A stretch of 38,677 nucleotides of DNA, from the NCBI GenBank assembly GCA_947448495.1, contig CANFNX010000007.1, forward strand, positions 1 through 38,677. Direction: 5' to 3'. The notes under the pieces are model-generated. The model had not been told where the DNA came from and ran no database searches. It worked only from the letters and a program-made list of their open reading frames with translations. Positions within the stretch are counted from its first letter, which is position 1. Each line of letters starts with the position of its first letter. Source of the stretch: Bacteriovoracaceae bacterium (lineage in GTDB: Bacteria; Bdellovibrionota; Bacteriovoracia; Bacteriovoracales; Bacteriovoracaceae). Below, piece after piece: positions 10,727 through 33,595 of this stretch. A program made the position numbers and the translations under genes.

Positions 10727-12184
10727 ATGAAGCGTGTTCTTCAACTTGCGGTTTTGTCCACCGTTCTAACTTCAGTGGCCCATGCGGGGATTGAGGTTAT
10801 CTATGGTGAGGATAATAGAGTTGAAGTTTTTGAAGCGACATCGGCCCAACAGCTATTGGCCAAATCCACGGCCTCCATGATTTCTGAAGCTGAGATGACC
10901 AGAGATTCCGCCCGTCCAGGATTTATCCAACTGGGTCAGCATACACTTCGAGACTGGCTCGAAGGTTCTCAGAAGAGTGCTTCAAAAAATCTTTTTTCTT
11001 CTGAAGGTGATGATCAGGCTGCGACGAAAGTGTCATTTTGCGATGGCACTCGGTTTACGGAACAACCGAATCCGGCCATGTGTTCTGGATTCCTGATCGC
11101 CCCAGACCTTATCGTAACGGCCGGACATTGTGTTGAAGTGGAAAACTTTTGTGAGAACTACCGTTGGGTTTTTGATTTTCATATGGATAAGGAAAGCAAC
11201 ACTGCAGGAATGAACGTCAAAGAGGAAAATGTCTATAAGTGTAAGCGAGTGGTTTCTAATATTTTAAGTACAACTCTGAATCTTGATTACGGTGTGGTTC
11301 AATTGGATCGACCTGTTTTAGATCGTGAGCCGCTTGAGATTCGCAACGATGCTCAGATTGCTGATGGTCAGGCCCTTCTTGTGATTGGAAACCCATCTGG
11401 TTTACCGACGAAAGTTGCCCCAGGTGCGAATGTTCGCACTAATCTTCACCCTAACTTTTTTTCGGCTAATCTAGATACATTCCAAGGTAATTCAGGCTCG
11501 GCGGTTTTTAATGCTGAGACAGGAGTGGTTGAAGGTATTTTGGTGAGAGGAGAGGAAGATTTCGTTCCTAATTATGAATTGAGATGTGTAGAGACCAAGC
11601 GCTGTGCAAGTGGAGAGTGTCGAGGTGAGGATGTGACTCGTATGACGGCCATTCCTGAAGTCGGCATGCAGAAAGCTCTCAATGATGCTGCATTGGCCGG
11701 TGATATTGACCAAGTTCGCTCAATTTTAGAAACAAATCTATGGATAGATTTTTATACTAAGGATGGTCAGAGTGCCTTGATTAAGGCCTCTAGTGCTGCG
11801 CAGACGGCAGTGATGAAAGAGCTAATCGCTCGAGGGGCCGAGGTGAACCTACAGGACGCCAAGGGAAATTCATCACTGCACGTTTTGGCAGTCAGTTTAA
11901 ATGAATTGAACGCTGATGCCCTAACGACACTCACTCAAGCTGGTGCGAATTTAGAATTAAGAAATTCTGCCGGAGAGACTGCTCTTCTGGTGGCGGCCAA
12001 GGCGTTAAACCTAGCAGGGGTTAAGCTTTTAATTGCTGCCGGTGCGGATAAAGAAGCTTTAGATCATAATGGGGAAGGAGTTCTTGCGATTTTTGAGCGC
12101 CTAGGTGATCAAAACGCCCTAAAAGAGCTGGCCGATCTAGGAATAAAGGCGGCTCCACCGATCGAGCGAATTGTTGAAATTTAA
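10727..12184 (+). CDS. Secreted trypsin-like serine protease with C-terminal ankyrin repeats
   Basis: A 485-residue protein. A Sec signal peptide spans 1-20 (cleavage after AHA). The chymotrypsin-fold domain covers about 100-300, with His134 (VTAGHCVE), Asp187 (NLDYGVVQLD) and Ser256 (QGNSGSAVF); the glycine after the serine is followed by Ser, as in V8/glutamyl-endopeptidase-like enzymes. Cysteines at 105, 119, 135, 142 and 172 fit disulfides in the exported form. From about 315 to 480 come roughly four or five ankyrin repeats (DAKGNSSLH, NSAGETALLVAAK, LLIAAGADKE). Ankyrin repeats bind proteins and are rarely joined to a secreted protease. AGGAG precedes the ATG, and a terminator follows directly. 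Function: probable exported protease whose targets are chosen by the ankyrin part (inference). Confidence 0.9.
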   Translation: MKRVLQLAVLSTVLTSVAHAGIEVIYGEDNRVEVFEATSAQQLLAKSTASMISEAEMTRDSARPGFIQLGQHTLRDWLEGSQKSASKNLFSSEGDDQAATKVSFCDGTRFTEQPNPAMCSGFLIAPDLIVTAGHCVEVENFCENYRWVFDFHMDKESNTAGMNVKEENVYKCKRVVSNILSTTLNLDYGVVQLDRPVLDREPLEIRNDAQIADGQALLVIGNPSGLPTKVAPGANVRTNLHPNFFSANLDTFQGNSGSAVFNAETGVVEGILVRGEEDFVPNYELRCVETKRCASGECRGEDVTRMTAIPEVGMQKALNDAALAGDIDQVRSILETNLWIDFYTKDGQSALIKASSAAQTAVMKELIARGAEVNLQDAKGNSSLHVLAVSLNELNADALTTLTQAGANLELRNSAGETALLVAAKALNLAGVKLLIAAGADKEALDHNGEGVLAIFERLGDQNALKELADLGIKAAPPIERIVEI

Positions 12185-14275: not shown

Positions 14276-14358
14276 TGTTGGGGACCCCAGGGGTTTTGGA
14301 ACTTATCGGTTTAGGGTGGTAAAACTAAAGTAGTCAGGGATTGTGCCGATAGGGGAAT

Positions 14359-14874
14359 ATGATTAGGCTTATCCTCATTATTCTTCTCCTTACACCACAA
14401 ATGATTCATGCTCAGGTCGTGGGCCATCCCGGCGGTGGAGTAGAGATCCTGGGTTATAATTCTAGCTCGGGAATGACTAAAGAGCAGTGGCTGTGTTTAA
14501 TGCAGTCAAGTAAGGCGAAGGTTCTAGAGGGTGATTTCTTGAAGGCGTGGGGACGTAAGTATGTTTCTGAAACAGACACATTCAATCTCATCGATTTAAT
14601 TTTGTTCAGTGTCTCTTTTAGAGAGATCGGTCTTTTTTTAACCCCTCAACCGCCTCAGCAGTACGGATGCGAAAAGGTTGAAAGAAGTGATATCTTTGAT
14701 TTGAAAAAAAGAAAAGATCATGACAACGAGCTCGCCCTTCTTAAAGACATTCTCAAAATTTGGGAAGAAGGCATGAAAGGAATTCAAGAGAAAAATACTT
14801 GTGATCAAAGCTTCGGTCCCCGTAAAAAATACGTCGAACACCTCAAGCAGCTTATTAAGATGTATGAAGAGTGA
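14359..14874 (+). CDS. Exported HPGGG-motif protein, module copy 1
   Basis: A 171-residue protein with a signal peptide (1-18, ending HAQ). Right after it comes the short motif GHPGGG, also found in the same place in the protein at 32933-33421. The rest is helical, with four cysteines in the mature part (residues 47, 104, 148 and a neighbouring region) and no known domain. GGGGAAT precedes the ATG. Its last 11 bases (14864-14874) overlap the start of the downstream TPR protein. An inverted repeat (TTATCGG ... CCGATAG) lies at about 14304-14351, just upstream. Function unknown; the context suggests it acts together with the TPR regulator. Confidence 0.8.
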   Translation: MIRLILIILLLTPQMIHAQVVGHPGGGVEILGYNSSSGMTKEQWLCLMQSSKAKVLEGDFLKAWGRKYVSETDTFNLIDLILFSVSFREIGLFLTPQPPQQYGCEKVERSDIFDLKKRKDHDNELALLKDILKIWEEGMKGIQEKNTCDQSFGPRKKYVEHLKQLIKMYEE

Positions 14875-16057
14875 ACATAATGCAAAAGATCATCTGAAAT
14901 TCATTGAGATTTGGGGACTTGTCCACAATAACATTCGAATGTTCAAGTATTGGATCGATAAAGGTGAACTATCGATACCTGAGACGCGTCTCCTTCGCGC
15001 TTTTTATCTATTTAAAAAAAATAAAAAACAAGAATGTCTTGAACTGATAAAGTCGAAAATGAGTGATGACCCTTTTTTGGAAGGGGTTCGGTTCTATCTT
15101 ATCGGGTTAACTTACAATCAATTTGGTCACTATCATTATGCTGTCGAAAACCTAGAGAAATCGATTGCGTACTTTGAAGAATCAAGGGAACTCGACTTTA
15201 TTTTAAACCCATTGTCACTTCTTGCTGTCGTTTATTGCAATCGCAGGGAAGAAGTGAAAATGGCCGGCATTCTTGATAAACTTAAGGATCTGGATCCCAA
15301 AACAACTCTAAGGAAGATTCAGATTCAGTATTCAGAATTTAGCTATTTCTATTTGTCTCATCAATTTGAGAAAGCAAAACGACTTTATGCCCAAGTGACA
15401 AAAGAGAATGTACCGGAATTTTCAAGCTTTAAACCCTATTTTATGATTTTGTTGTTCATGTTTCATGTCCGGGAAAAAAACTACAACAAGTGCTACGAGC
15501 TTATGGCGGAATACTCTGAGCTTAATGAGCATGTCGTGAAAGTGAACTACATTTACAATAAGGCGCTCCTTGATCTACTCGTCCATGAAAAACCACTCTA
15601 TGTCTATGCCAGTGACTTTGCCGATTTTCCAGAATTACACCACCAGCTAGAGGTGATTAAAAATTTAAAAGTGGGGGACCTTGAAGGGGCAAAAAACTTC
15701 TGGGACAGACTTTCAAAGCATAATCCCGATTTGTATCAGGCGAACTTTGAATACATGGGGGAGGAATCACTTTTTCTTCAGTCTCTTCAGCGCTATCATC
15801 CAAGTTCGGGTAAACTGCAGATTCAAGCTGAGGAATTAGCGAAGTTTTCGACTAATCTTCTGAAGCTTGATTATATTTTTACACACGCAACGATTCCGAT
15901 GTCTCAGGGCGATTTAATAAAGCTTATCTGGAAGGAAGAGATCTCTGAGTTAGGCAAAACAAAATTGAGAAGACTCATTGCAGATTATGCAAAAAAATAT
16001 CACAAAAAAATCAAATCCTATCAGTCAACTTATCAGCTTGATAAGAAAGTTTCCTAA
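14864..16057 (+). CDS. TPR-like protein with a C-terminal winged-helix-like domain, module copy 1
   Basis: A 397-residue cytoplasmic protein (no signal peptide). Most of it is made of helical pairs of TPR type, such as EGVRFYLIGLTYNQFGHYHY and DPFLEGV-like units over residues 30-310. The last 60 residues read like an OmpR/SARP-type winged helix: DLIKLIWKEE, then KLRRLIADYAKK, then a hairpin ending STYQL. A start at 14801 would be longer, but the ATG at 14864 overlaps the upstream stop by 11 nt, and the paralogue at 31756-32943 begins in the same way (MKSEH versus MKNEH). It is probably a DNA-binding regulator controlled through its TPR part; this is inference. It ends one base before the convergent ORF6N gene. 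Confidence 0.8.
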   Translation: MKSEHNAKDHLKFIEIWGLVHNNIRMFKYWIDKGELSIPETRLLRAFYLFKKNKKQECLELIKSKMSDDPFLEGVRFYLIGLTYNQFGHYHYAVENLEKSIAYFEESRELDFILNPLSLLAVVYCNRREEVKMAGILDKLKDLDPKTTLRKIQIQYSEFSYFYLSHQFEKAKRLYAQVTKENVPEFSSFKPYFMILLFMFHVREKNYNKCYELMAEYSELNEHVVKVNYIYNKALLDLLVHEKPLYVYASDFADFPELHHQLEVIKNLKVGDLEGAKNFWDRLSKHNPDLYQANFEYMGEESLFLQSLQRYHPSSGKLQIQAEELAKFSTNLLKLDYIFTHATIPMSQGDLIKLIWKEEISELGKTKLRRLIADYAKKYHKKIKSYQSTYQLDKKVS

Positions 16058-30094: not shown

Positions 30095-31282
30095 CTATAA
30101 TGGTGAGATTTGTGGTTTGCTCTTTTTGCGCTCTTTTAAAGGAATTTTATATCCACCTTGCACGATAAATTGGATGGATCCAATGGGAGTATGACTTAAC
30201 ACTTCGCCTTTAGATTGAACAAGAGCATTGTTGATTTTAATGTAGGTGCCTCTGACGACTGGTTCGATGAAAAAGTTTTTATACCCGAGCTGCACTTTCG
30301 CTTCAGCATGGGCGCCAAATCCTGCAACATGAAACTGATTATCCACACCCTGCCAGTTCCACCAACTGTCTTGATGATACTTAACCGTTGTTTGTGGAAC
30401 CATCATCCCTGCACCAGCTCCGAGACCAGTTCCAATTTTAAAATCACCGTTTCTTGAGGTGAAGAGATTGTTTTTATAAACAGCACCCGCGTGCACATAG
30501 TTGTACCCATTGGTATGCTCAAAGCTTAACCAGCGCACATCTCCGGTTTGCTTCACTTGATCAAAAGTTAATCCCGTCAATAGAGCTGGGTCACCACTTG
30601 CATCCGGTACAAACACAGTATGGTTATAATCTCCAGTGACTTCGTATTTGAGTTGGTTATCAAAGACCCATTTCATATGATCTAGGCCTACGACAATGTC
30701 CCAGTTATCATTAACCTGATATCCAATTCTCAAGTTGTATTGAGGGATAGGGATACGGCTTGGACTGATGTAATCTAGGATATCTTTTGATTGGCGATCG
30801 TGTCCAACCGCATCGTGAATGGTAAATGTCCCATCCTTGGTTTTGAATGTCGCATCTGATTTTGAGTGAAATCCCCGATTATATCCCCATGAAAAATAGA
30901 TCATTCTTTTTTTCGGAGGATCTAACTTAAAAACTCTATCCAGGTCTTGGGTCAGTGTTTGCAGAGGGCTTTTTTGACTTGGAAAACAAAGGGGAGTTGG
31001 ATCATCGAGTAAGTTTGGCTTCTTTGAAACCTCTGAGGAAAGAATGAGGGGGGCCTCCTCAATCACGAGCTCCACATCCACGAGTTCAAGTTCATCTTTG
31101 GTGATTTGATTCTCTGAACTTGTGACGACATGATTTTTAGATAACTCTGAAAGCTGGTCTATTTTTTCATCTGTCAGGTTATAGTCCGATAATTTCTCGT
31201 AAGGAATGATTAGAGGGGAGTTCTCTTGAGCAAAAAGCGTTTGAGGTCCAATCATCGCCATAATCATTAAAAGAATTTTCAT
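30095..31282 (-). CDS. Outer-membrane beta-barrel protein
   Basis: A 395-residue exported protein (signal peptide 1-18, ending FAQ). Residues 19-130 are acidic and polar, without barrel character. From about 132 on, alternating amphipathic strands rich in Gly, Tyr, Trp and Asn appear (MIYFSWGYNRGF, YNLRIGYQVNDNWDIVVGLDH, FKIGTGLGAGAGMM, AEAKVQLGYKNFFIEP, IGSIQFIVQGGYKIPL), the pattern of an outer-membrane barrel of about 10-12 strands. No specific family named. It is preceded by TATAAT only 4 nt before the ATG, with no ribosome site. It lies upstream of the men operon but in the same direction, 142 bp apart. Confidence 0.82.
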   Translation of the reverse strand: MKILLMIMAMIGPQTLFAQENSPLIIPYEKLSDYNLTDEKIDQLSELSKNHVVTSSENQITKDELELVDVELVIEEAPLILSSEVSKKPNLLDDPTPLCFPSQKSPLQTLTQDLDRVFKLDPPKKRMIYFSWGYNRGFHSKSDATFKTKDGTFTIHDAVGHDRQSKDILDYISPSRIPIPQYNLRIGYQVNDNWDIVVGLDHMKWVFDNQLKYEVTGDYNHTVFVPDASGDPALLTGLTFDQVKQTGDVRWLSFEHTNGYNYVHAGAVYKNNLFTSRNGDFKIGTGLGAGAGMMVPQTTVKYHQDSWWNWQGVDNQFHVAGFGAHAEAKVQLGYKNFFIEPVVRGTYIKINNALVQSKGEVLSHTPIGSIQFIVQGGYKIPLKERKKSKPQISPL

Positions 31283-31755: not shown

Positions 31756-32943
31756 TTATACAACTTTCTTGAATTTATAACAGTCCTGAGATGATTTGAG
31801 CTCGCAATGATGCTTCTTCTTATAATCGTTGATGAGTTTTCTAAGACGATTTAGGGATGCTTCTGAAATGTCTTCTGACCACAACCAAAAAATAAGATCA
31901 GATTTTTTTATAATGGATGGCCCATTTTTTAAGATGTAGTGAAGCCTATCCAGACGGTTTGGCATTTTTTTGAGTCTTTGAACGTCAATTTGATTTGATT
32001 TCAAATCAAGCTTGTATTTCTCTAAGGCGCACGAAAATAGTGAGTAAGGTGCTTTAAATTGAAAATCTTCTTGGTAGACCTGTGGATTATGCTTGGCGAG
32101 CCTCGCCCAGATGATTTTGGCCTCGCTTTGATCGTTCTGGGATAAGTGCTTGAGGACTAATAACTGATCCAAGAGTTCCTGAGAATCCTGAAATTCACTG
32201 GGGTAAATATATAAAGGATGATCCTTCACCAGATGATCGAGTAAGATTTTGATGTAAGAGTAATTCGCACTAGAGGTGAAGCCAGAGGATTTCTTATAGG
32301 CCTCAAGGATGGAGTAACATTCCTCATAGTGCTTTAAACTAAATGAATTTTGAAATTTCAGCATGAGTAAGCTTGGCATAAAGAGCTTAATCTCTTTACC
32401 CGTCATCTTGCATGCCTTCTCAAGAACATGATTGGATTTTTTTATCTCACCCATTTTTGATAAATAAGAAGCTTCCGTCAGGTAGACCAAAAGTTGACAG
32501 TAATCATTAGGGGGAGTGTGCTCTTTGAGTTCATCTAGCCAATATGCCATCTCTTTTATGAGTTTCCTGTTGGCGAGATTTAGAATAATGGTGGATATGG
32601 CATAAATGCTAAAGTGTTCATCTTGAGAGACCTTGAATTTTGCAACAGATGCTTCGAGATATTCTTGGGCAAATTGATGTTTGCCGAAAAGATTTTGGGA
32701 GAGTCCTAAAAGATAGAGCCTCACCCCCTCGCCAAAGTCGTCAGGCAGAGGTGGCGTCTTGAGATGTTCAAAAATTTTAGCCTTATTCTTTTTCCGATAG
32801 TAAAAAAATCCCCAGAGAACTTTTTTATAACTGAGACTTAAATCTGATTTTTCAATCTCTTCCTGAAAGCGGGTTGGTTCATACTGGACCATGAAAAACA
32901 GCGTCTTAAATTCTTCTCGTTTTTTTAGATGCTCATTTTTCAT
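31756..32943 (-). CDS. TPR-like protein with a C-terminal winged-helix-like domain, module copy 2
   Basis: A 395-residue cytoplasmic paralogue of the protein at 14864-16057. Shared landmarks: start MKNEH/MKSEH; EGVRLYLLGLSQNLFGKHQ; PLYIYPSEF versus PLYVYASDF; WARLAKHNPQVYQ versus WDRLSKHNPDLYQ; and the end DLIFWLWSEDIS, LRKLINDYKKKHH, SSQDCYKF. Helical TPR-type pairs fill residues 30-310. The last 60 residues follow an OmpR/SARP-type winged helix (helix, LIxxLWxE, LRxLI recognition helix, hairpin ending in Tyr). Its ATG overlaps the upstream exported-protein stop by 11 nt, exactly as in copy 1. Likely a regulator sensing through its TPR part (inference). Confidence 0.8.
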   Translation of the reverse strand: MKNEHLKKREEFKTLFFMVQYEPTRFQEEIEKSDLSLSYKKVLWGFFYYRKKNKAKIFEHLKTPPLPDDFGEGVRLYLLGLSQNLFGKHQFAQEYLEASVAKFKVSQDEHFSIYAISTIILNLANRKLIKEMAYWLDELKEHTPPNDYCQLLVYLTEASYLSKMGEIKKSNHVLEKACKMTGKEIKLFMPSLLMLKFQNSFSLKHYEECYSILEAYKKSSGFTSSANYSYIKILLDHLVKDHPLYIYPSEFQDSQELLDQLLVLKHLSQNDQSEAKIIWARLAKHNPQVYQEDFQFKAPYSLFSCALEKYKLDLKSNQIDVQRLKKMPNRLDRLHYILKNGPSIIKKSDLIFWLWSEDISEASLNRLRKLINDYKKKHHCELKSSQDCYKFKKVV

Positions 32944-33421
32944 AATGATGAATCATGATTTTAATCTTGTCTTGATCAATTCCCAGTTCAAAGTAATTTT
33001 GACAACGCTTGAGCTGCTCATTTTCGGTAGATATTTTCTTGAGTAACTCCAACTGATCACTTTCACTCAGGCAGCTTGGGTATTTGACGATTTCGGCGTG
33101 TGAGTTCTTGAATAAAACCTCCAGCATCACTTCAAGTGATTGCGTTTCAATCAGCTCATAAAACGATCTGGAATTTTGATATGTTTTTCCCACATTTTGG
33201 ACATATTGCTTTTGTAAGCCTTCTAGACCAACAAGAATTGATTCACATTTTTTAGGACTCAACATTTCTGGGTCATTGATTCCATGTGGCTTTTTATTAT
33301 CTTTTGCGATGGTTTTTGGTTGCGGTTCATCTGTCCCACCACCAGGGTGAACTTCAGTTTGAGCAAAGATGTTTTGCACCAATAAGAGAGAGCTGATTAG
33401 GGTTATAACTTTGATATTCAT
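32933..33421 (-). CDS. Exported HPGGG-motif protein, module copy 2
   Basis: A 162-residue protein with a signal peptide (1-20, ending FAQ), followed within five residues by HPGGG, as in the protein at 14359. The rest is charged and helical, with three cysteines in the mature part, and the end (KIKIMIHHYEK) resembles the copy 1 end (LKQLIKMYEE) in pattern. I take the ATG at 33421; a TTG nine bases upstream is in frame, and both have only a modest ribosome site. Both module copies show CCGATAGG just before the gene. It is divergent from the HTH gene at 33596. Function unknown. Confidence 0.78.
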   Translation of the reverse strand: MNIKVITLISSLLLVQNIFAQTEVHPGGGTDEPQPKTIAKDNKKPHGINDPEMLSPKKCESILVGLEGLQKQYVQNVGKTYQNSRSFYELIETQSLEVMLEVLFKNSHAEIVKYPSCLSESDQLELLKKISTENEQLKRCQNYFELGIDQDKIKIMIHHYEK

Positions 33422-33595
33422 CCTTCGCAACCTATCGGAAAGGAGAAGGTAATTCTTGAGTGAACCGCTTGACGCTCAACTAAATAACTGTATTTACATG
33501 GTTTTGCGTAACAATTTTTCCCCCGAATCTGGCGAGGCTTCAATTACCATCTGTGGAGTCCTGAAGAATTTGAACCGAAAACCAGGAATCAACGT

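What the first reader, a model, noticed from the sequence alone, without database searches (positions are those of the whole stretch)
14359..16057. Two-gene module: exported HPGGG protein overlapping a TPR/winged-helix regulator (copy 1)
A secreted protein (signal peptide, then GHPGGG) and a cytoplasmic TPR protein with a winged-helix-like end overlap by 11 nt. An exported protein translated together with a helical-repeat, DNA-binding-type partner recalls peptide-signalling systems in which a TPR receptor senses an exported propeptide (RRNPP type). The order, sizes and domain placement differ from RRNPP, so a new sensing system is possible. The pairing is seen in the sequence; the signalling role is inference.
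Basis: partly seen in the sequence, partly recalled or inferred. Interest (0 to 1): 0.78.

Follow-up and report, generated by a model that had tools for sequence, protein, structure and literature searches.

The report
Exported Gly-peptide protein paired with regulator
Relatives of predatory bacteria carry many copies of a two-gene unit, an exported protein bearing a short glycine-rich peptide plus an intracellular protein that looks built to bind a partner and DNA, which may be an unrecognised way for these bacteria to sense their own secreted proteins or each other.

Summary
In detail: a Sec-type exported 171-aa protein (mature start QVVGHPGGG) overlaps by 11 nt a 397-aa TPR protein ending in a winged helix. 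The genome has eight copies. In this regulator clade 45 of 45 copies with upstream sequence, in four genera, have the exported partner; the reverse search found no orphan partner at E<1e-8. Modules sit behind FliA/sigma-28 attack-phase-type promoters (40 of 44, versus 7 of 214 control genes, one itself a module), so close that mRNAs may be leaderless. Across Bdellovibrionota, related TPR-winged-helix genes neighbour exported trypsin-like proteins; 27 of 43 such neighbours carry tandem Gly-rich peptides of 6-10 (mostly 8) residues, locus-specific, with 255 synonymous to 17 nonsynonymous codon differences between units; other genes there: 1 of 623. Best reading: the regulator senses its partner's glycine-rich peptide, RRNPP-like in logic but not a member (carrier too long; DNA-binding domain C-terminal, OmpR-like; Gram-negative). 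Pairing, promoter pattern, repeats and predicted fold are shown; peptide binding, release, uptake and DNA binding are inference. I saw no description in the listings of seven literature searches.

The parts
14326..14352 (+). sigma-28 (FliA)-type promoter of copy 1, TAAAGTAG-N11-GCCGATAG, 6 nt before the ATG
   Evidence: 13 of 16 positions against the recalled FliA consensus; 0 of 200 shuffles as good; module-wide test against the published attack-phase consensus
14359..14874 (+). exported protein, copy 1 (171 aa)
14359..14412 (+). signal peptide (18 aa, cleavage A|Q by eye; no SignalP available)
   Evidence: Q column invariant in 35 of 35; 43 of 43, but there the site was located by the [ASTG]Q pattern itself
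14413..14445 (+). mature N-terminus QVVGHPGGGVE, the Gly-rich element
   Evidence: GG in the first 14 mature residues in 38 of 43 proteins; shuffles mean 1.6, max 8
14864..16057 (+). TPR-winged-helix protein, copy 1 (397 aa)
15854..16039 (+). C-terminal OmpR-like winged helix (residues 331-392)
32933..33421 (-). exported protein, copy 2 (162 aa from the ATG; 165 aa from an upstream TTG)
31756..32943 (-). TPR-winged-helix protein, copy 2 (395 aa)
33432..33459 (-). sigma-28-type promoter of copy 2, TCAAGAAT-N12-TCCGATAG, 10 nt before the ATG (weak: 11 of 16, shuffle p 0.105)
14303..14329 (-). divergent sigma-28-type promoter TTTAGTTT-N11-ACCGATAA facing the small exported ORF 14275-13907, overlapping the copy 1 promoter region

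Best explanation
The module is a self-sensing regulatory pair of the cell's motile (attack-phase-type) programme. SHOWN by sequence and prediction: a sigma-28-type promoter precedes two overlapping or adjacent genes; the first encodes a Sec-type exported, fast-evolving protein with at least three cysteines whose mature N-terminus is a Gly-rich peptide (typically Q-x(2-6)-GG(G)); the second encodes a cytoplasmic solenoid protein ending in an OmpR-like winged helix; the pairing is obligate in this clade and old, and in related clades the neighbour is an exported trypsin-like protein, often with tandem, selectively maintained Gly-rich peptides of about 8 residues. INFERRED: the solenoid recognises the Gly-rich peptide of its own partner (single copy in the small proteins, repeated in many protease-type ones); the peptide is met in the cytoplasm either as a released fragment re-imported by an Opp-type transporter or as not-yet-exported partner; binding changes DNA binding by the winged helix and so the expression of the operon or of nearby exported-protein genes. 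Several different copies per cell would be parallel channels. In the protease-type relatives the carrier might release its own peptides.
For: Obligate pairing both ways: 45 of 45 forward; reverse search of 26 congeneric genomes, 34 of 34 partner hits at E<1e-8 beside a regulator gene or fragment. Co-divergence: Spearman 0.53 over 43 pairs, 2000 permutations at most 0.253; seven own paralogues 0.68, exact p 0.023. Glycine is confined to the mature N-terminus: 25.6% in residues 1-14 versus 2.5-5.2% later; GGG in 26 of 43 versus at most 2 in shuffles. Related pairs: tandem repeats in 27 of 43 neighbours versus 1 of 623 other genes, period 8 in 18, 7 in 4, 9 in 3, 6 and 10 in one each; 255 synonymous to 17 nonsynonymous codon differences between adjacent units (neutral synonymous share 0.26). 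Paralogous loci in one genome carry different units (G354, G348, G123, G367), congeners share them (PPGNTSI/PPGNTAI; GGPDTAGSS/GGPDSAGS). The small-partner regulators form one clade. Fold: solenoid plus winged helix; among the 50 listed Foldseek rows the highest query TM-score is NprR with its NprX peptide (0.49, 4gpk_A), though no match reaches E 0.001. FliA and four SBP_bac_5 (OppA-type) proteins are encoded in the genome.
Against: No direct evidence of peptide-receptor binding, release, import or DNA binding. Co-variation of repeat unit with regulator is weak (Mantel 0.31, p 0.009; 0.22, p 0.06 without one of each congener pair). 16 of 43 protease-type neighbours have no detected repeat; these include at least one mis-picked ORF (L072) and genes that may be cut or wrong neighbours. 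Three repeat-bearing neighbours are divergent, not co-directional. Five of 43 small proteins lack GG in the first 14 residues. Foldseek's top rows are 26S proteasome chains and Rpn6 (solenoid plus winged helix; that this winged helix, the PCI domain, does not bind DNA is recalled), so a winged helix need not bind DNA. Array detection favours identical residues, which lowers the nonsynonymous count.
Confidence: 0.45

Rival explanations
1. Export-monitoring switch without any released peptide: the TPR protein binds its partner only before export, like the TPR chaperone-coactivators SicA or IpgC of type III secretion or like FlgM with sigma-28 (comparisons recalled), and is freed to act on DNA when export is active.
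For: Gene overlap suggesting translational coupling (11 nt in both window copies; overlap in 18 of 28 further small-partner pairs with script-chosen starts); sigma-28 setting; no import step needed.
Against: Does not by itself explain why short units are repeated and kept identical in the protease-type neighbours or why the Gly-rich element sits directly behind the cleavage site; gene order is reversed in part of the protease-type pairs.
Confidence: 0.25
2. Structural reading: the Gly-rich segments are spacers or surface tethers of exported proteins, and the winged-helix protein is a local regulator with no contact with the partner.
For: The units are mostly Gly- or Pro-rich, as linkers are; in the two-domain neighbours they lie between the trypsin-like and C-terminal parts.
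Against: Spacers should drift in sequence, whereas units stay identical while codons diverge (255 to 17) and differ sharply between paralogues; obligate co-inheritance of the small partner with the regulator.
Confidence: 0.15
3. Effector-partner (toxin-immunity or polymorphic-effector) pair: conserved N-terminal sorting part, variable C-terminal part, cognate cytoplasmic partner.
For: Conserved N-terminus with very variable rest and co-diverging partner, many divergent copies per genome, effector-first gene order. Sub-threshold Pfam/NCBIfam matches of one exported paralogue include SieB (0.029) and an effector model (0.34).
Against: No family above its cut-off in the three exported partners that I scanned (the other partners and PADLOC were not scanned); the cytoplasmic protein is a solenoid with an OmpR-like winged helix, and would not meet a Sec-exported toxin; relatives pair the regulator with trypsin-like proteins.
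Confidence: 0.07
4. The winged helix is a protein-interaction (PCI-like) module and the TPR protein an adaptor or chaperone for the exported partner, not a transcription factor.
For: Foldseek's top rows, over nearly the full length, are proteasome chains including Rpn6 with the same solenoid plus winged-helix order.
Against: The sequence profile of the C-terminus ranks ToxR/RegX3/PhoB-type DNA-binding domains (22 of 23 matches), Trans_reg_C matches 10 of 39 members at E<=1, best 5.2e-5, hhalign 94% to OmpR domains.
Confidence: 0.08

Closest known systems
RRNPP quorum-sensing systems (Rap, Rgg, NprR, PlcR, PrgX; criteria in PMC10075063, passages read)
   Same: Adjacent genes for a Sec-type exported product and a 250-500-aa TPR cytoplasmic protein; short peptides; several divergent copies per genome; NprR-NprX has the best query TM-score among the listed structural matches.
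   Different: Bdellovibrionota, not Firmicutes; exported carrier 140-202 aa or a trypsin-like protein of 526-804 aa instead of a 10-100-aa propeptide; DNA-binding-type domain C-terminal and OmpR-like instead of N-terminal HTH; peptide at the mature N-terminus or in tandem inside a protease-like protein; sigma-28-type promoter.
OmpR/PhoB/ToxR-type winged-helix regulators and SARP/HilA-type TPR regulators (the latter recalled)
   Same: Winged helix with the Trans_reg_C pattern; TPR plus winged helix in one protein.
   Different: No receiver or membrane segment seen; order reversed (TPR first); obligate exported partner.
FliA/sigma-28 attack-phase regulon of Bdellovibrio (PMC3627812, PMC5430801, passages read)
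   Same: TTAAG-N16-CCGATA-like promoter in front of nearly all small-partner modules.
   Different: A regulon, not a sensing pair; no such pair appears in the passages I read.
TPR chaperone-coactivators of type III secretion (SicA, IpgC; recalled)
   Same: TPR protein encoded with an exported partner and tied to transcription.
   Different: Sec-type signal peptide here; the TPR protein carries its own DNA-binding-type domain.

Membership tests
RRNPP | propeptide of 10-100 aa | tested here: not met
   small partners 140-202 aa; 14 complete protease-type partners read are 526-804 aa; criterion from PMC10075063
RRNPP | propeptide exported by Sec and matured to a short peptide | tested here: inconclusive
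   signal-peptide pattern in all 43 (no SignalP); maturation not testable here; tandem 6-10-aa units in 27 of 43 protease-type neighbours
RRNPP | receptor of 250-500 aa | tested here: met
   381-410 aa in 43 pairs
RRNPP | receptor harbours TPRs | tested here: met
   helix-pair solenoid in the model; TPR_1 and TPR_2 each match 12 of 39 members at E<=1, below cut-off for copy 1
RRNPP | genes directly adjacent | tested here: met
   45 of 45
RRNPP | N-terminal HTH (in DNA-binding members) | tested here: not met
   winged helix at residues 331-392; residues 9-286 are solenoid helices
RRNPP | cognate peptide binds the TPR domain after import | not testable with these tools
   four SBP_bac_5 proteins exist in the genome, which shows only that import is possible
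OmpR-type winged-helix DNA-binding domain (PF00486) | fold and sequence pattern | tested here: met
   at family level; copy 1 itself has no PF00486 match at E<=1
OmpR-type winged-helix DNA-binding domain (PF00486) | binds DNA | not testable with these tools
   none
sigma-28 (FliA) regulon | FliA-type promoter in front of the operon | tested here: met
   40 of 44 modules score >=9 of 11 versus 7 of 214 control genes, one of them a module itself, so 6 of 213; FliA gene present; expression not measured
Toxin-immunity pair | recognisable toxin or immunity family | tested here: inconclusive
   three exported partners scanned in Pfam and NCBIfam, none above a cut-off; PADLOC not scanned

The most novel reading that the evidence does not exclude
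Bdellovibrionota possess their own class of peptide communication: exported carriers (small proteins with an N-terminal peptide, or trypsin-like proteins that release their own tandem octapeptides) paired with TPR-OmpR-type receptors, present in many orthogonal copies per cell and switched on with the attack-phase sigma-28 programme; it would be the first genetically encoded peptide signalling with an intracellular TPR receptor that I know of in Gram-negative predators.
Probability: 0.3. Interest if true: 0.93.

Novelty: categorically new. Interest (0 to 1): 0.82.

Why it matters
If the inference holds, a Gram-negative phylum of predators has a genetically encoded peptide-sensing system that evolved apart from Gram-positive RRNPP, with several private channels per cell and a link to the attack phase; how predators sense each other or their own secretion is open. 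Even without the signalling step, an obligate exported-protein/regulator pair behind attack-phase-type promoters, and a set of exported trypsin-like proteins with locus-specific, selection-held octapeptide arrays, had no covering family above cut-off in the proteins scanned and no description in the listings of seven literature searches. It is directly testable with synthetic peptides.

Tried and rejected
Pfam and NCBIfam scans gave only sub-threshold TPR and Trans_reg_C matches for the regulator. One viral-contig scan found no relative. Being next to an exported gene is weak evidence by itself: a crude signal-peptide rule of 330 genes in these loci, far too many to be used as a count, so I relied on homology, the Q/GG pattern and the reverse search. 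A recurrent neighbour family (KKAEAG-type small proteins and ~400-aa exported proteins) has no usable Pfam match and was not pursued. The catalytic-motif scan of the trypsin-like partners (both His and Ser patterns in 27 of 37) is loose and includes spurious His matches. Sigma-28 promoters are not general in protease-type pairs: of 22 first or partner genes scanned only G033 and G025 score above 8 (both 10 of 11). The exported protein was not folded (server busy); the VIA-align 2 structure comparison was not available. Weak matches (about 1e-6) of the profile belong in part to other TPR protein families and were not counted.

Full report
What is there. ORF 14359-14874 (+) encodes 171 aa with a signal peptide and the mature start QVVGHPGGG; the downstream ORF, read from the ATG at 14864, encodes 397 aa to 16057; the overlap is 11 nt. 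Copy 2 (33421-32933 and 32943-31756, minus strand) has the same overlap. The regulator search in the window's own assembly (2.85 Mb, 202 contigs, 87% complete) found eight copies on six contigs; the seven complete ones all have an exported protein directly upstream on the same strand, the eighth is cut by a contig end. One of the seven partners (L007) lacks the TGG/GGG motif.

How general. A profile of the eight regulators matched 25 of 129 genomes of the family at E<=1e-5, a broader one 47 of 368 genomes of the phylum at 1e-6; the weakest matches belong in part to other TPR proteins. I read the neighbourhoods of the strong matches. Taking the matches with E<1e-60 and the eight of genus g139 (four genera, two families), 45 of 46 have upstream sequence, and 45 of 45 have the exported partner, from a 53-nt overlap to a 22-nt gap with script-chosen starts (for 28 of them). 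Genus g42 also holds one regulator of the protease type (G113). Shorter fragments at contig ends were not counted. The reverse search with the partner profile in 26 genomes of the genus gave 34 matches at E<1e-8, all beside a regulator gene or fragment (one is a tandem second partner), and 13 further matches at E 6.5e-5 to 0.009 that cover mainly the first part of the profile. The distribution is patchy: 11 of 26 genomes of the genus had a regulator match, one of them only at 8.6e-6.

The exported protein. In the alignment of 35, Gln at the predicted +1 position is invariant; it is also found in all 43 of the larger set, but there the site was located by the [ASTG]Q pattern. All 43 have at least three cysteines, 34 exactly three (my running note said 33). 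Glycine makes up 25.6% of the first 14 mature residues and 2.5-5.2% of later stretches; GG occurs there in 38 of 43 and GGG in 26 of 43, against shuffle means of 1.6 and 0.08. The rest is highly variable. Three of these proteins were scanned in Pfam and NCBIfam; no family passes its cut-off.

The regulator. AlphaFold2 on six sequences gives mean pLDDT 86.5, pTM 0.71: helix pairs over residues 9-286, then helix, short strand, two helices and a beta hairpin, the winged-helix order, with pLDDT 74-88 for residues 331-390 and 55 for the last seven. Sequence evidence agrees: the C-terminal profile against the PDB gives 22 of 23 matches named response regulators or ToxR/TcpP/CadC activators, best E 0.061; Trans_reg_C in 10 of 39 members at E<=1, best 5.2e-5; hhalign to OmpR domains of the same genome 94%, E 1.4e-7, over 44 columns. 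Foldseek finds no PDB match below E 0.001; the top rows are 26S proteasome chains, Rpn6 among them, and among the 50 listed rows the best query TM-score, 0.49, belongs to NprR with its peptide. Solenoids match each other easily, so this is a lead only.

Promoter. Upstream regions of the modules share a FliA-like element. Against the recalled consensus TAAAGTTT-N11-GCCGATAA, 39 of 45 regions score at least 11 of 16, against 11% of dinucleotide shuffles. Against the published attack-phase consensus TTAAG-N16-CCGATA, found in 92 of 140 attack-phase promoters of Bdellovibrio (PMC3627812, passages read), 40 of 44 score at least 9 of 11, versus 7 of 214 other genes of the same loci, one of which is itself a module (6 of 213; Fisher p 9e-36). 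The CCGATA element ends 7-9 nt before the start codon in 28 of 44, which with the usual FliA spacing (recalled) would put transcription start at the start codon. In the window, copy 1 has a strong site (13 of 16), copy 2 a weak one (11 of 16, p 0.105). FliA is encoded in the genome; in Bdellovibrio it is reported essential and an attack-phase master regulator (PMC5430801, passages read). That the module is an attack-phase unit is a strong prediction, not a measurement.

Protease-type relatives. More distant regulators sit next to larger exported proteins (526-804 aa for the 14 complete ones read). Of ten tested, seven have Pfam trypsin matches at E<=0.05, two above the cut-off. Reading 15 of them showed short tandem repeats in most, between the trypsin-like and C-terminal parts, such as GGNGPTNT, PPGNTSI, GGDWADDG, GSGSGGDG; G052, G113 and G236 have no clear array. 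A new profile of these regulators found 44 matches in 29 of 368 genomes at E<=1e-12; I fetched the 32 places not yet held, leaving out four short fragments, and 15 of the 32 showed a repeat-bearing neighbour, three of these divergent. A uniform scan found arrays in 27 of 43 neighbours that I named as partners and in 1 of 623 other genes of the same loci; that one lies about 2 kb from a regulator gene, with another gene between. The 16 without arrays include a mis-picked ORF (L072). The period is 8 residues in 18 of 27. Between adjacent units 438 codon pairs are identical, 255 differ synonymously and 17 nonsynonymously; random changes would be 26% synonymous. The array finder favours identical residues, but cases such as 15 synonymous and no nonsynonymous differences in 17 pairs (L134) are hard to reconcile with drift. 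Different loci in one genome have different units, and the two congener pairs compared share theirs nearly. Unit similarity follows regulator similarity weakly (25 loci, Mantel 0.31, p 0.009; 0.22, p 0.06 after removing one of each congener pair). A loose scan finds His and Ser protease motifs in 27 of 37 partners.

Evolution. The two regulator profiles align over the solenoid and the winged helix (probability 98.8%, E 1e-16). In a maximum-likelihood tree of 53 regulators (32, 7 and 14 chosen from the three groups) the small-partner group is one clade (100/95) and so are the two protease-type groups; the latter two had been told apart by regulator similarity, so only the first is an independent result. 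With the midpoint root the small Gly-peptide partner thus probably arose once. Partner and regulator co-diverge (Spearman 0.53 over 43 pairs), and the partner's normalised similarities are mostly lower than the regulator's.

Reading. Common to these groups are an exported product, usually with a short Gly-rich peptide element, and a solenoid protein with a DNA-binding-type domain, kept together in either gene order. I take the peptide element to be what the solenoid recognises, and the output to be transcription. That is inference. Whether recognition happens before export or after release and uptake is open; four OppA-type proteins make uptake possible. It is not an RRNPP member: propeptide length and the place of the DNA-binding domain fail the criteria of PMC10075063. 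It may work like one.

Literature. Searches for predator peptide signalling, TPR and winged helix in Bdellovibrio, attack-phase promoters, RRNPP outside Firmicutes, octapeptide repeats and Bacteriovorax repeats returned nothing that describes such a pair among the rows listed; only the top rows of each were shown, and only open-licence PMC papers were searchable. PMC12034629 (passages) concerns other TPR proteins.

Noticed in passing
L150 (own genome C108); L143 3039-4889, L144 2607-777, L078 3262-1423: Another TPR plus OmpR-type winged-helix protein family followed by a small exported protein, in a locus with thrS/ddl-, rimI- and rimP-like genes (names by eye); possibly another regulator-exported partner pair.
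   Followed up: no
L053 4741-5723, L054 215-2446, L058 1943-2401, L126 3-1693, L130 5-2236, L132 4396-6627: Recurrent neighbours of several modules in two families: small proteins with a KKAEAG(I/V)I-like pattern and about 400-aa exported proteins; no usable Pfam match. Candidate target genes of the regulator.
   Followed up: partly
window 10727-12184 (+): Exported trypsin-like protein with ankyrin repeats (Pfam Trypsin_2 4.6e-17, Ank_2 1.5e-10), 2 kb upstream of copy 1.
   Followed up: partly
window 30095-31282 (-): Exported protein downstream of copy 2 whose start codon also lies 8 nt behind an attack-phase-type promoter (9 of 11).
   Followed up: no
L043 1582-2031 and 2122-2577 (+): A module with two tandem exported partner genes before one regulator, both with a Q(V/I)KTGGG start.
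   Followed up: partly
L042 and L053: One genome (G102) has two modules head to head (L042) and two tail to tail (L053).
   Followed up: no
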